Source: a virus
Direction: 5' to 3' (one strand)
Virus record (IMG/VR): IMGVR_UViG_3300042914_002803
Coordinates: 1 to 31,022 of that record
DNA length: 31,022 nucleotides
Below the pieces are notes generated by a model, which made no database searches, was not told where the DNA came from, and saw only the letters and a program-made list of their open reading frames with translations. The translations under genes were made by a program, and so were the position numbers. Positions 22,986-31,022 of the stretch are shown here, piece by piece (positions within the stretch are counted from its first letter, which is position 1; every line of letters begins with the position of its first letter).

Positions 22986-23425
22986 GCAACCCTGTCGTCA
23001 GGTTCAGCGTCGTCGGCACCCCGGTTCAGCAGGGCTCGAAGCGTCACGTCGGCGGTGGGCGCATGATCGAGGCAGCGAACGGGCACCGGGAATGGCGTCA
23101 CGCCGTCGCCACCGAGGCCGCGGCCGTCGCCGCCCGGCGCACCGACACGCCCCTCGACGGGCCGCTGTGCCTGTCGGTGGCGTTCTCGTTCCCGATGCCC
23201 GCGTCCAGGCCGAAGCGTCTGCTGCGCATCGGTCGCGCCTGGAAGCAGACAGCCCCGGACCTCGACAAGCTGATTCGCTCCGTCGGCGACGCTCTCACCG
23301 TCTCGGGTCTGATACGCGACGACGCCCGGATCGGGATGGTGATGGCGTCGAAGGTCGAGACGACCGACGCCGCCGGAGCCGACATCGCACTCTGGCCCCT
23401 CGACGCGCTCGGGGGTGACCGGTGA
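22982..23425 (+). CDS. RusA-family Holliday junction resolvase
   Basis: A 147-residue nuclease of the RusA fold that resolves four-way DNA junctions and branched replication intermediates. The N-terminal VVGTPVQQGSKRHVGGGR fits the family opening. The acidic and basic active-site set appears as TAPDLDKLIRSVGDAL (D93, D95, K96, D103) and LIRDDARI (D113, D114). Phages often use RusA to clean up DNA before packaging or during recombination. GTG 22982 overlaps the previous gene by four bases. Confidence 0.9.
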   Translation: MSNPVVRFSVVGTPVQQGSKRHVGGGRMIEAANGHREWRHAVATEAAAVAARRTDTPLDGPLCLSVAFSFPMPASRPKRLLRIGRAWKQTAPDLDKLIRSVGDALTVSGLIRDDARIGMVMASKVETTDAAGADIALWPLDALGGDR

Positions 23426-24432
23426 GCCACCGACAGCACGGCACCCGAGCGAAGTACACGATCGACGGCTGTCGCTGCGACGACTGCCGGGACGCGTCGA
23501 GGCTGTACGAGCTGGAGCGTCGGAACGCCCTCACCCCACGCCTCGTCTCCGCTGAGCCTGCTCGACGTCACGTCCTTGAGCTCATGGCGCAGGGCCTCGG
23601 GTTCAAGCGTGTCGGCCAGCTGGCCGGGCTGTCGACGTCGACGATGACGGCCCTCATCTACGGCAAGCCCGGCCGGCCACCGACCAAGCGCATCAAGCCG
23701 TCGACGGCCGAGGCGATCCTGGCGGTGAGCTGGAGTGTCGACCACCTCGCCGACGGGACGAGGATCGACGCTGCCAGCACCCACGCCAACATCGCCAAGC
23801 TCACCGCCGCCGGTGTCCCGCGTGCCCGCATCGCTGAGCGTCTCGGCACCACCACCCTGCAGATCCCCGCCGGTCGACGCTACGTCACCGCACGCACCGC
23901 CCGGATCATCGCCGGCATGGCAGCCGATCTGGACGCCGGGACGCTGGTGACGGTCCGACGCTCACGCCACGGCGATCAGACGATCGCCCCGCCGGCAGCC
24001 GAGAAGCCCCGCCGCACGTTCGCCGAGTCCGACGAGATCGACCGGCTGTTCAACGAGCTGGCCGACGTCGTCCTGGAGCGACAGCAGCCGTGGCGTGCGC
24101 AGGCTGCGTGCCGCGGTGAGGACCGGCCGACGTGGGTGTGGTTTACGGCGCGCGGTGACGTCCCGACGCAGGCGAAGGCCCGGCGCATCTGCACGGCGTG
24201 TCCGGTTCGCGCCGAGTGCCTCGCCTACGCCGAGTCAAAGCGCCTGCGGATCGGCATATGGGGGGGCGTGTCGATCCACGCCCACCTGCGCCAGAACGCC
24301 CCGACCGTCGAGTGCCCCGAGTGCGGCGACGCGTTCGTCGCCCAGGGCCAGCAGAAGGTGTGCAGCGAGGAGTGCCGCCACGCCCGGCACCACCGGCAGA
24401 AGATGCTGAGCCACCAGCGGGCGGCGTCGTGA
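23422..24432 (+). CDS. multi-domain WhiB-family protein with HTH regions and zinc ribbon
   Basis: A 336-residue regulator-like protein. The N-terminal HGTRAKYTIDGCRCDDCRDASRLYELERR (C17, C19, C22) is a Cys motif common in actinophage regulators. Two helix-turn-helix-like stretches follow (GLGFKRVGQLAGLSTSTMTALIYG, about 58-81; LTAAGVPRARIAERLGTTTLQI, about 127-148). The WhiB core has C230, C257, C260 and C266 (C-x26-C-x2-C-x5-C) and GIWGG at 278-282; WhiB proteins normally hold a [4Fe-4S] cluster. The C-terminus holds a probable zinc finger (C298, C301, C314, C318) and a basic end. It probably reprograms transcription, of phage or host. Confidence 0.85.
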   Translation: MSHRQHGTRAKYTIDGCRCDDCRDASRLYELERRNALTPRLVSAEPARRHVLELMAQGLGFKRVGQLAGLSTSTMTALIYGKPGRPPTKRIKPSTAEAILAVSWSVDHLADGTRIDAASTHANIAKLTAAGVPRARIAERLGTTTLQIPAGRRYVTARTARIIAGMAADLDAGTLVTVRRSRHGDQTIAPPAAEKPRRTFAESDEIDRLFNELADVVLERQQPWRAQAACRGEDRPTWVWFTARGDVPTQAKARRICTACPVRAECLAYAESKRLRIGIWGGVSIHAHLRQNAPTVECPECGDAFVAQGQQKVCSEECRHARHHRQKMLSHQRAAS

Positions 24433-24893
24433 TCGTCCACGCCGAGCCGTTCCACGGCAACGAACCCTCCGATCGCATCGAGGCGATCACGCACCTGCTG
24501 CAGCGTCCCGACTGGCACGCCGAGGCTGTGTGTCGCGGCCGGACCGACGTGATGTTCCCGAAGTCGAGGAACCGGTCACAGCGGTGGGCCGAGGCGATCG
24601 CCGTCTGCGACGGCTGCCCGGTGCGAACCCCGTGCGCCGAAGCCGCCGACGAGCGCCCTGAGATTCACGGGGTGTGGGGTGGCCGGCGTCGGATGCCCGA
24701 GGCCGGGAAGTTCTCCGTGATCGACCTCATGGTCGACGTCGGCGGCTGGTGGTCCGCACCGCAGCTCGCCGAGACGACCGGCTGGACCCAGCAGATGGCT
24801 CGCAGGCGACTCCGGGAGCACCTCCTCGCCGGACGCCTGGAGTGCCGCAACGAAGGGCGCACCGTGTTCTACCGACCGACAGGAGCGAAGTGA
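24429..24893 (+). CDS. WhiB domain fused to a C-terminal winged-helix-like domain
   Basis: A 154-residue protein. The WhiB core carries C35, C60, C63 and C69 (VCDGCPVRTPC) and GVWGG at 81-85. It is followed at about 95-150 by a winged-helix-like unit (VIDLMVDVGGWWSAPQLAETTGWTQQMARRRLREHLLAGRLE, then VFYRP). The second WhiB gene in a row, it overlaps the first by four bases. WhiB proteins usually are about 80-130 residues without such an extension. The fusion suggests direct, sequence-specific DNA binding in addition to partnership with the host sigma factor. Confidence 0.82.
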   Translation: MIVHAEPFHGNEPSDRIEAITHLLQRPDWHAEAVCRGRTDVMFPKSRNRSQRWAEAIAVCDGCPVRTPCAEAADERPEIHGVWGGRRRMPEAGKFSVIDLMVDVGGWWSAPQLAETTGWTQQMARRRLREHLLAGRLECRNEGRTVFYRPTGAK

Positions 24894-26471: not shown

Positions 26472-26861
26472 ATGACCAGCAACGACCTTGACTGGGAGTT
26501 CGAGGAACTCTCGACCTCCGGCACGTTCGCCACGTTCAAGTCGCTCGGCGACAGCTACACGGGGCGCATCGAGCAGTTCAGCGTCGACGGCGGCACCGAC
26601 TTCGACGGGAACCCCGTGCCGCTCCTCGTCCTCGCCACCGTCGACGGCACCGTCAAGATCACTGGCTCCCAGGCGTCGCTGCGCCGGCAGATGACCGACC
26701 TCGCCACCCGGCTCACCGTCGGCCACGGCTGCAAGGTCACCTACGACTCGGACTACGAGACGAAGCACGGCACGAAGGGGAAGTCGTTCGCCGTCGCCGT
26801 CACCCCGACGCCCGTCGCGCCGATCGTGCCGACGTACAGCGACGACGAGGCCCCGTTCTGA
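26472..26861 (+). CDS. ssb: single-stranded DNA-binding protein (phage type)
   Basis: A 129-residue protein with a beta-rich OB-like body (TFATFKSLGDSYTGRIEQFSVDGG, PLLVLATVDGTVKITGSQ, KVTYDSDYETKHGTKGKSFAVAV) and an acidic, aromatic-ended tail (TYSDDEAPF). The tail is the hallmark of SSBs that recruit partners. SSB protects single-stranded DNA during replication and recombination. Its own start-associated motif and a strong hairpin directly after the gene suggest an individually tuned expression level. The body is not typical of E. coli-type SSB, so it belongs to a phage branch of this fold. Confidence 0.78.
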   Translation: MTSNDLDWEFEELSTSGTFATFKSLGDSYTGRIEQFSVDGGTDFDGNPVPLLVLATVDGTVKITGSQASLRRQMTDLATRLTVGHGCKVTYDSDYETKHGTKGKSFAVAVTPTPVAPIVPTYSDDEAPF

Positions 26862-26884: not shown

Positions 26885-26917
26885 GGCCCGGTCCGGGATT
26901 GCGCCCCGGACCGGGCC
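26885..26917 (+). terminator. strong hairpin after ssb
   Basis: A perfect 13-bp stem (GGCCCGGTCCGGG at 26885-26897, CCCGGACCGGGCC at 26905-26917) with a 7-base loop. There is no U-run. It can end or attenuate transcription after ssb, before the next gene. Confidence 0.7.
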
Positions 26918-26956: not shown

Positions 26957-27373
26957 ATGGCGACACTACTGATCCCCACGCCCATCTGGGCCACGCCCGA
27001 CGGCTGGTTCACGACCACCGCCCACACGCTCGAACAGGCCGACGACGAGCAGCTCGTCGATCACTTCCACCGGCTCGCCTGCGCCTGCATCCTCGCCGCC
27101 GACCAGGGCGTCCACAACGTCGCGCTCGTCGCTGCCCGACGCTGGTCGGAGTGGGTGATCGGCGTCCGGCTCGGTGACGGCGTCACACCCGACGGGAAGC
27201 CGATCAACCCCGGCCCGGCGTTCGCCAAGCTCACCCCACGGCAGCGCCTCACCTGCTGTCAGATGGGACGCCTCGACGGCGACGTCCTCCACGACCACCT
27301 CCGGCGTGCCACGTCGATCGACGAGGTCGGACGCCAAGCCTGCCTGCGCTACGTCGACGCAGTGGTGGCGTGA
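26957..27373 (+). CDS. early protein, 138 residues, unknown function
   Basis: The sequence MATLLIPTPIWATPDGWFTTTAHTL is followed by helices (EQADDEQLVDHFHRLACACILAADQGVHNVALVAARRWSEWVIGV). A Pro-rich loop (TPDGKPINPGPAFAKLTPRQRLTCCQMG) and a helical end come next. It starts after the hairpin and copy 5 of the repeated motif, and it overlaps the primase-like gene by four bases. The overlap suggests stoichiometric production with it, perhaps as a replication accessory protein; I do not recognise a family. Confidence 0.65.
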   Translation: MATLLIPTPIWATPDGWFTTTAHTLEQADDEQLVDHFHRLACACILAADQGVHNVALVAARRWSEWVIGVRLGDGVTPDGKPINPGPAFAKLTPRQRLTCCQMGRLDGDVLHDHLRRATSIDEVGRQACLRYVDAVVA

Positions 27374-29163
27374 CCGACCTCGACCCACGCGAAGCGAACT
27401 TCCGAGATGCGCTCGCGATGCGCGCCAAGCTCGCCGAGGCGCGCATCGCACAGCGCGAGCAGACGCTCGTCGACAACGCCGACCCGGCGACCGAGGCGAT
27501 CCTCGCCGACCTCGTCAACCAGCGCGTCACAGCGTCACAACCCGAGCCCCTTGTCGAGCACGTCGAGCTGCCCGACTGGCCCGTCGACGTGCTGCCCGAC
27601 TGGGTGGCCGACCACGTCACCACCACCGCGGCCCGGCTCCAGGTGCCCGTCGACCTCTGCTGCCAGCTGGCCGTCGGCGTCCTCGCCTCGATCACCCAGG
27701 GCCACGTCCGGGTCGCCGTCGACGACTGGGCCGAACCGACTGCGCTGTTCTGTTACTGCGCCATGCACTCCGGTGCCGGCAAGTCCCCGGCCGAGAAGGC
27801 GATTGTCGGGCCACTGCGGGAGTGGGAACGCCGCCGGCGGGCCGACACCGCCGACGACCACGCCATCGCCGACGCCGAGTGGAGGGTCGCACAGAAGCGC
27901 GTCAAGGAACTCGAATCACAGCACGCGAAAGGTGCGTGCGACCTGTCGGAGTTCCGGGAGGCTGCGATCCGTGCCGCCGACCCGCGACCTGCGCCGTTCC
28001 GGCTCACCGTCGACGACACCACGCCCGAACGCCTCACCCAGCTCCTCGCCGCCCACAAGCGGCTCGCCCTCATCTCCACAGAAGCCGGGCTCCTCGACAT
28101 GGTCGCCGGGGCCTACGCCGCGAACTCCCAGGCGAACCTCGACGTGTACCTCAAGGCGTGGGCCGGCGAAACGATCATCCGGGACCGCAAGGGCGGCGAC
28201 GGCGGGCCCGAGACCACCGTCGTCGAGGACGCCCTGCTGTCGGTCGTCCTGACGATCCAGCCGTCGGTCATCGAGAGGTACCAGCAGACCCAGCCGGAGC
28301 TGCGTGGCCGCGGGTTCTTCGCCCGGTTCATGCCGTCGATGCCGACGTCGCTGGTCGGCACCCGGAGGTTCGCCAAGCGTGGCGGCCCAGGGCCTGAGGC
28401 CGATTGCTACGCCGCCCGGATCGCCGACCTCGCCGACACCCTCAGCGGCCCCGAGTTCACCATCACGCTCGACGACGACGCCGCCGAGGAGTTCTACGGG
28501 TGGTGCGAACAGATGGAGGCCGACCTCGCCCCCGGCCGGCCCCTCGAACCTCTGCACGACGCCTCGTCGAAGATCAGGTCGTCCACGCTCAGGCTCGCTG
28601 CGATTCTCACCACAGCGTCCACCCAGGCGCTCACCGTCGACGTCGCCACGATGCGGGCGGCGATCAGGGTGGGCGACTACTGGGTGGCGCACGCGATGGC
28701 CGTTGAAGGTGTCGTCCTCGGTGCCGACTCCGAGGACCAGCACGCCGTGGACGTGGCCGTCGACATCCTCAACTGGTGCCGGAAGCACAGCCGAACGGAG
28801 TTCACCCCGAGGGACGTCCACCTGTCGCTGCGACGTCGGTACTACCACGTCGAGGACCTCGTTCCCGGCCTGGAGCTGCTCGAAGCGAAGGGCTGGGTGT
28901 GGTTCGTGCTGGGCGAGTTGACCGACGTCGGCCAGCGTGGTGCGCGCGTTCTCGCGCGAACTCGGCCCGAAGTTCTCACGCGCAGCGTTCAGCATCTCAC
29001 GGACAGCGGAAGTACGCGTACAAGTACGCGTACGCGCTTAGAGCAGGGGAAAACACCTCCTCCTCCTCCCAAAAGCACACCCACAGACGAGGACCCGGAC
29101 CCTGCGCGCGTACGCGTACTTGTACGCGAACTCACCGAGGCCGACCTGGGGCCCTTGCTGTGA
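27370..29163 (+). CDS. primase/helicase-like protein (DUF3987 type)
   Basis: A 597-residue protein. After a helical N-terminus, ALFCYCAMHSGAGKSPAEKAI contains a P-loop-like HSGAGKS (133-139). Next come FRLTVDDTTPERLTQLLAAHKRLALISTEAGLLDMVAG and RFMPSMPTSLVGTRRF. The order and style match DUF3987/YfjI-like proteins, thought to act in replication initiation, often found with SSB genes. The C-terminal 50 residues are low complexity (STRTSTRTR, PPPPPKSTPTDEDPDP, ARVRVLVRE). The DNA there carries a 23-bp inverted repeat. The overlap with the preceding start (GTGA) indicates coupling. Confidence 0.82.
   Translation: MTDLDPREANFRDALAMRAKLAEARIAQREQTLVDNADPATEAILADLVNQRVTASQPEPLVEHVELPDWPVDVLPDWVADHVTTTAARLQVPVDLCCQLAVGVLASITQGHVRVAVDDWAEPTALFCYCAMHSGAGKSPAEKAIVGPLREWERRRRADTADDHAIADAEWRVAQKRVKELESQHAKGACDLSEFREAAIRAADPRPAPFRLTVDDTTPERLTQLLAAHKRLALISTEAGLLDMVAGAYAANSQANLDVYLKAWAGETIIRDRKGGDGGPETTVVEDALLSVVLTIQPSVIERYQQTQPELRGRGFFARFMPSMPTSLVGTRRFAKRGGPGPEADCYAARIADLADTLSGPEFTITLDDDAAEEFYGWCEQMEADLAPGRPLEPLHDASSKIRSSTLRLAAILTTASTQALTVDVATMRAAIRVGDYWVAHAMAVEGVVLGADSEDQHAVDVAVDILNWCRKHSRTEFTPRDVHLSLRRRYYHVEDLVPGLELLEAKGWVWFVLGELTDVGQRGARVLARTRPEVLTRSVQHLTDSGSTRTSTRTRLEQGKTPPPPPKSTPTDEDPDPARVRVLVRELTEADLGPLL
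29011..29128. repeat. 23-bp perfect inverted repeat with GTACGCGTAC palindromes inside the primase-like gene
   Basis: Arms at 29015-29037 and 29106-29128 are exact reverse complements, separated by 68 bases. The 10-bp palindrome GTACGCGTAC occurs three times (29012-29021, 29024-29033, 29110-29119). The intervening sequence is strongly purine/pyrimidine biased (GGGGAAAACACCTCCTCC-type). The arms encode unlike peptides (STRTSTRTR-like versus ARVRVLVRE), so selection acts on DNA or RNA rather than protein. A replication origin or a binding site for a dimeric protein is the leading idea. Confidence 0.75.
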
Positions 29164-30924: not shown

Positions 30925-31022
30925 GGCCCGGTCGGGTCGAACCTGAGAATCCTGAGAACCTGAGAATCCTGAGAATCGGTCGGGTCGAACGGATGTTCTT
31001 TCGCAGGGGCCAGCGGGAGACT
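30925..31022. other. non-coding packaging/cos-like region at the window end
   Basis: This region lies between the HNH gene and the window end, continuing at 1-59. It carries the repeat array at 30929-30990. If the two window ends are joined, bases 31011-31022 and 1-11 form a dyad with 10 of 11 pairs around T31022, the sort of symmetry expected for staggered terminase cutting. The inference is that this is the cos region of a linear phage genome that circularises. Confidence 0.55.
30929..30990. repeat. nested repeats: 14-bp direct repeats flanking four CCTGAGAAT-type units
   Basis: CGGTCGGGTCGAAC occurs at 30929-30942 and again at 30977-30990. Between them CCTGAGAAT-type units start at 30942, 30951, 30959 and 30968 (period 9, 8, 9), the second with C or a shared base at its end. 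Such arrays next to terminase genes are typical binding sites for the small terminase subunit. Confidence 0.7.

What the first reader, a model, noticed from the sequence alone, without database searches (positions are those of the whole stretch)
29011..29128. 23-bp perfect inverted repeat with palindromic iterons inside the end of a primase/helicase-like gene
Two exact 23-bp reverse-complement arms (29015-29037, 29106-29128) carry three GTACGCGTAC palindromes and flank 68 bases of strand-biased A- and C/T-rich DNA. The protein encoded by the two arms differs, so the symmetry is kept for DNA or RNA. Lying in the last gene of a replication block, it is a good candidate replication origin, a centromere-like or operator site for a phage DNA-binding protein (the WhiB/HTH proteins are candidates), or a large RNA hairpin before the next start.
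Basis: partly seen in the sequence, partly recalled or inferred. Interest (0 to 1): 0.72.

Follow-up and report, generated by a model that had tools for sequence, protein, structure and literature searches.

The report
Phage replication origin inside helicase gene
The mirror-image repeat at the end of this phage's helicase gene looks like the place where the phage starts copying its DNA, two opposed sets of short binding sites around an opening zone, and many related phages carry the same layout with different letters.

Summary
In detail: two exact 23-bp reverse-complement arms (26 of 27 bp when extended) flank 68 bp inside the last 51 codons of a DUF3987 (YfjI-type) helicase gene. Keeping the protein and reshuffling synonymous codons never gave an arm over 18 bp in 1000 trials. 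The same layout lies at the 3' end of DUF3987 helicase genes generally: 37 of 63 distinct genes have an inverted match of at least 17/20 bp, against 4 of 339 other gene ends on the same contigs (p about 1e-30). The arms are convergent arrays of 9-12-bp iterons whose sequence differs between relatives. The spacer is lower in G+C and usually carries a pyrimidine microsatellite on the helicase coding strand. The protein is modelled as an MCM-like AAA+ helicase with a C-terminal winged helix, followed by a disordered tail that is exactly what the repeat DNA encodes. Best explanation: an iteron-type replication origin read by the helicase's own winged helix, as known for SaPI/PICI Rep and SCCmec Cch2. 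An RNA hairpin or a WhiB/HTH operator is poorly supported. The GTACGCGTAC palindromes are not conserved. No binding or replication was tested. A new variant of a known kind.

The parts
27370..29163 (+). DUF3987 / YfjI-type helicase gene (597 aa), predicted MCM-like AAA+ core plus C-terminal winged helix
   Evidence: PF13148 E 3e-77; phrog_2373 DNA helicase; AlphaFold2 pLDDT 83; MCM matches Z about 18; SCCmec Cch 5dgk listed
28729..29004 (+). codons 454-545: C-terminal winged-helix domain, the proposed reader of the iterons
   Evidence: predicted helices 454-472, 480-486, 494-506 and strands 510-514, 528-531, pLDDT mostly about 90; in the window/L004 pair 7 of 11 non-synonymous changes outside the tail fall here
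29012..29035 (+). left iteron array: two 12-bp direct repeats GTACGCGTACAA, GTACGCGTACGC
   Evidence: core NNCGNGTAC kept in L004 and L005
29108..29131 (-). right iteron array, opposite orientation: read on the minus strand GTTCGCGTACAA, GTACGCGTACGC
29038..29105 (.). 68-bp spacer, proposed unwinding region (GC 0.60 against 0.68 for the window); exactly 68 bp also in L004 and L005
29043..29053 (+). purine-rich tract GCAGGGGAAAA (one C) just before the pyrimidine repeat
   Evidence: similar purine-then-pyrimidine order seen by eye in many relatives' spacers
29056..29070 (+). pyrimidine microsatellite CCTCCTCCTCCTCCC on the coding strand
   Evidence: such repeats on the coding strand in 23 of 36 family spacers, on the other strand in 4
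29005..29133 (+). codons 546-588: predicted disordered tail, encoded by the origin DNA
   Evidence: pLDDT under 50 for residues 546-588

Best explanation
[quoted passage not shown] Two convergent arrays of 12-bp iterons (core NNCGNGTAC, two per array) flank a 68-bp unwinding region with a purine-rich tract followed by a pyrimidine repeat on the coding strand. Proposed mechanism: the C-terminal winged helix of the DUF3987 protein binds the iterons, places two MCM-like hexamers facing each other, the spacer melts, the helicases load on single strands and replication starts in both directions. Shown here: the arrays, their family-wide recurrence at this place, covariation of the arms, strand bias of the spacer repeat, and the predicted fold. 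Inferred: binding by this protein, melting, hexamer loading, bidirectional replication.
For: Relative L005 (54-58% protein identity) keeps the same architecture with the same 68-bp spacing and different arm letters; across window, L004 and L005 four arm pairs change on both sides and none on one side only. Among 63 distinct DUF3987 genes, 37 have an inverted match of at least 17/20 within 300 bp of the stop, against 4 of 339 other gene ends in the same loci; controls inside the gene 2 of 170; many DUF3987 loci in bacterial genomes show it too. Iterons run forward on the left and reverse on the right, mostly with period 9. Spacer GC is lower than the locus in 39 of 40. The pyrimidine repeat is on the coding strand in 23 of 36. 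Predicted fold: MCM-like core plus winged helix, then a disordered tail exactly where the DNA carries the array. Iteron similarity correlates with winged-helix similarity after the helicase core is partialled out (r 0.38, permutation p 0.001; core given winged helix 0.18). Five of six relatives carry a Prim-Pol domain in long open frames of the size of their helicase frames, and a Streptomyces plasmid has prim-pol, DUF3987 and the array as its only annotated replication genes. Precedent: PICI origins are two iteron sets flanking an AT-rich region immediately 3' of rep (PMC6092414); SaPI Rep and SCCmec Cch2 use their C-terminal domain to bind such iterons (PMC7581432).
Against: No binding, footprint or replication data. 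Only two relatives share this particular iteron family. The window's spacer is G+C 0.60, not AT-rich in absolute terms. About 40% of DUF3987 genes score below the cut-off, and a T1-like phage (Rtp) has no array. Cumulative GC skew is only loosely compatible: minimum near 30.6 kb, and coding direction confounds it. No Prim-Pol gene was found in this record, so the priming enzyme is unknown.
Confidence: 0.85

Rival explanations
1. A long RNA hairpin at the end of the helicase message, controlling decay, translation of the next gene or termination.
For: The RNA folds far better than shuffles (z -9.4) and the arms covary.
Against: Mismatches across arms are not clearly enriched for G-U (22 of 109; 18 expected if all twelve types were equal); no pair changes on one side only; several relatives have unequal arrays, for example 9 forward against 3 nearby reverse iterons in L182 and 7 against 1 exact cores in L181, which a hairpin does not explain but iterons do; many arrays lie well after the stop codon; no Rfam match reaches its gathering score.
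Confidence: 0.06
2. Operator or centromere-like sites for another phage protein (WhiB-like, HTH repressor, a partition protein).
For: Repeated sites and nearby DNA-binding genes, including two WhiB-domain proteins.
Against: The array follows the DUF3987 gene family across phages, a plasmid and bacterial genomes; iteron similarity tracks the helicase winged helix; convergent arrays around a low-GC, strand-asymmetric spacer fit an origin better than an operator.
Confidence: 0.05
3. A recombination or packaging site (att, resolution or cos/pac-like) that happens to lie in the gene end.
For: Inverted repeats flanking a spacer are typical of recombinase sites, and the phage has an integrase.
Against: Iteron sequence, spacer length and iteron number vary widely between relatives while position relative to the helicase is kept; an origin precedent with the same layout exists.
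Confidence: 0.03

Closest known systems
SaPI / PICI replication origins (Rep or Pri-Rep with downstream ori)
   Same: Two sets of iterons flanking a presumed melting region, at the 3' end of the initiator helicase gene; for SaPIs the C-terminal domain of the helicase is the reported reader (PMC6092414, PMC7581432)
   Different: The helicase here is DUF3987, matched best to MCM; the array lies inside the coding sequence; the element is a phage with capsid, portal and tail genes; the spacer carries a strand-specific pyrimidine repeat. [quoted passage not shown]
SCCmec Cch / Cch2 helicases and putative SCCmec origin
   Same: Self-loading helicase with a C-terminal DNA-binding domain and iterons downstream of its gene (PMC7581432); Cch (5dgk) is listed among fold matches of the window protein
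   Different: The Cch2 site has three short direct repeats whose deletion, not that of the inverted repeats, abolished binding; here convergent 12-bp arrays; DUF927 or D5-type rather than DUF3987
Phage P4 alpha protein and its ori/crr
   Same: Primase-helicase initiator that reads its own origin repeats (general knowledge; PMC6092414 mentions alpha and its cognate site)
   Different: No sequence comparison made here; this protein has no primase domain, though relatives carry Prim-Pol
Lambda-type origin in the O gene
   Same: Iterons inside the coding sequence of an initiator gene
   Different: Lambda has four tandem iterons in one set (PMC11447400); here two opposed arrays, and the initiator is itself the predicted helicase

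Membership tests
SaPI/PICI-type replication origin | located at or immediately 3' of the initiator helicase gene | tested here: met
   inside the last 51 codons; same position across the family
SaPI/PICI-type replication origin | two sets of iterons flanking a central region | tested here: met
   two convergent arrays of 12-bp iterons, 68-bp spacer
SaPI/PICI-type replication origin | AT-rich melting region between the iterons | tested here: inconclusive
   window spacer GC 0.60 against 0.68; 39 of 40 family spacers lower than their locus, mean -0.15
SaPI/PICI-type replication origin | specific binding of the iterons by the helicase C-terminal domain | not testable with these tools
   only indirect: co-variation of iterons and winged helix
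SaPI/PICI-type replication origin | drives autonomous replication together with rep | not testable with these tools
   needs a replication assay
PICI (the element) | satellite without its own virion genes | tested here: not met
   portal, capsid and tail-tube genes present
DUF3987 (PF13148) | match above the curated cut-off | tested here: met
   260.6 bits against a cut-off of 27
MCM-like AAA+ helicase with winged helix | fold of the AAA+ core and C-terminal winged helix | tested here: met
   6mii_E Z 18.3, 274 residues, 3.6 A for the core; some chains align through residue 534, but at 8-11 A rmsd, so the winged helix rests mainly on the model's own secondary structure; predicted model only
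Lambda-type O-gene origin | single tandem iteron set in the initiator gene | tested here: not met
   two opposed arrays
Curated RNA structure family (Rfam) | match at gathering threshold | tested here: not met
   best 24.1 bits, far below gathering scores

The most novel reading that the evidence does not exclude
DUF3987 proteins are a large class of MCM-like self-loading initiator helicases of phages and plasmids, each with its private origin in or just after its own gene, and the strand-fixed pyrimidine microsatellite in the spacer is a single-strand loading signal (comparable in role to DnaA-trios), so that origins could be read directly from sequence.
Probability: 0.4. Interest if true: 0.75.

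Novelty: new variant of a known kind. Interest (0 to 1): 0.62.

Why it matters
Replication origins of most uncultivated phages are unknown. If this layout is what it seems, the origin can be found from sequence in a large share of phages and plasmids with a DUF3987 helicase, and a domain of unknown function gains a concrete role as initiator helicase. It would extend an origin organisation described as unique to PICIs to phages, and give a bacterial-virus system for how two MCM-like helicases load at opposed sites. The embedding in a disordered protein tail shows how a phage can place an origin inside coding sequence.

Tried and rejected
DNA-level search for close relatives in public phages and plasmids: no match. 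Pattern scans of viral contigs: the exact 22-bp left-arm pattern found nothing; the degenerate 21-bp pattern gave 119 stretches, of which only the L004 contig showed the long inverted repeat. Rfam: only sub-threshold chance hits. Palindromic GTACGCGTAC as the conserved unit: rejected, broken in L004 and L005. RNA hairpin: argued against by lack of clear G-U enrichment and by unequal arrays. GC skew: too weak and confounded by coding direction. A first pass over bacterial-genome loci with a crude gene finder mis-oriented several and was redone with a profile. A sequence profile against the PDB gave only a weak hit to LidA, taken as chance. Literature: eight held papers mention DUF3987 with replication; I looked inside three of these and in the TLS paper, by term search only, and none described such an origin for DUF3987.

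Full report
Observation. It is by far the longest exact inverted repeat with a span under 400 nt in the window (next 13 bp). Keeping the protein and resampling synonymous codons gave at most 18 bp in 1000 trials. The gene is DUF3987, in a phage family annotated as DNA helicase (PHROG 2373).

Close relatives. Two loci encode close homologues. L004, an IMG/VR contig, is 97% identical in protein; L005, a contig in a Conexibacter MAG, about 54-58%. Both carry the repeat at the same place with a spacer of exactly 68 bp, but with different arm letters. Four arm pairs change on both sides, none on one side only (three sequences only, 16 of 500 shuffles reach this). Within each arm lie two 12-bp direct repeats with the core NNCGNGTAC. 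The palindromic form seen in the window is not kept. Between window and L004, 4 of 5 codon changes in the arms are non-synonymous, against 12 of 46 elsewhere, so the arms are not kept for the protein.

Family-wide pattern. I collected about 90 DUF3987 genes, mostly from viral contigs, and measured the best 20-bp inverted match near the stop codon. At least 17/20 was found in 58 of 87, against 2 of 170 windows upstream in the gene and 5 of 147 windows downstream. After removing near-duplicates and requiring a loop of 20-200 bp: 37 of 63 against 4 of 339 ends of other open frames in the same loci, Fisher p 9e-31. Many DUF3987 loci in bacterial genomes show it as well, some with short loops of 12-18 bp. 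The arms are tandem iterons, forward on the left and reverse on the right, mostly with period 9: TTTTTGTCC types, CATGCGCGT, CATTCGCGT, ATGTCGCGC and others. Some arrays are in the gene, others just after it. The spacer has lower G+C than its locus in 39 of 40 and a pyrimidine microsatellite on the coding strand in 23 of 36 spacers, on the other strand in 4. The unit of that repeat changes (CCT, CTT, CT, ACTT, TTTA, TTTC) but place and strand do not.

Protein. AlphaFold2 gives a confident model: core 73-450, winged helix about 454-545, and residues 546-588 disordered. These 43 residues are encoded by 29005-29133, which is the origin DNA; the first iteron starts 8 bases after the last winged-helix codon. 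The core matches MCM helicases (Z about 18, 274 residues) and SCCmec Cch is in the Foldseek list. These are fold resemblances of a predicted model. Five of six relatives checked have a Prim-Pol domain. A circular Streptomyces plasmid of 18 kb has prim-pol, DUF3987 and the array, and no other annotated replication gene (its gene table may be incomplete).

Who reads the iterons. Across 46 loci, iteron similarity follows winged-helix similarity beyond what the helicase core explains (partial r 0.38, p 0.001, against 0.18 the other way). A partial Mantel test is known to be optimistic for related sequences, so this is supporting, not proof. In the close pair, 7 of 11 non-synonymous changes outside the tail fall in the winged helix (17% of the length), against 7 of 33 synonymous (Fisher p 0.02).

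Explanation. The best account is an iteron-type origin read by its own helicase. [quoted passage not shown] The hairpin account is weaker: no clear G-U excess, unequal arrays in several relatives, arrays beyond stop codons. What is not shown: binding, melting, loading, replication. The T1-like phage Rtp has a distant DUF3987-type helicase and no such array, and for the T1-like phage TLS the authors report no such repeats (PMC11447400), so the pattern belongs to part of the family.

Novelty. The kind, an iteron origin next to a self-loading helicase, is known. New, as far as the held literature shows, are its occurrence as a general feature of DUF3987 helicase genes of phages, its embedding in a disordered tail, and the strand-fixed spacer repeat. 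Only open-licence papers could be searched.

Noticed in passing
window 30928-30990: Short direct repeats (CCTGAGAATCCTGAGAACCTGAGAATCCTGAGAATC) bracketed by two copies of GGTCGGGTCGAAC, just after the HNH gene near the window's end; may be a packaging or terminase-related site.
   Followed up: no
window 26885-26917: Perfect 13-bp inverted repeat GGCCCGGTCCGGG / CCCGGACCGGGCC with a 7-nt loop, kept letter for letter in L004, terminator-like in shape.
   Followed up: no
window 23422-24432 and 24435-24893: Two adjacent genes with WhiB domains, the first also with HTH-like segments.
   Followed up: partly
window 26472-26858: Protein without Pfam or PHROG match that ends in DDEAPF, like the acidic tip of single-strand binding proteins; two genes upstream of the helicase.
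   Followed up: no
L127, L179, L184, L191, L183: Relatives with arrays carry a Prim-Pol domain in long open frames that match the size of their helicase frames; the window record has no Prim-Pol match, so its primase is unknown.
   Followed up: partly
L255 (phage Rtp) 3650-4200: T1-like DUF3987-type helicase gene end without an iteron array.
   Followed up: yes
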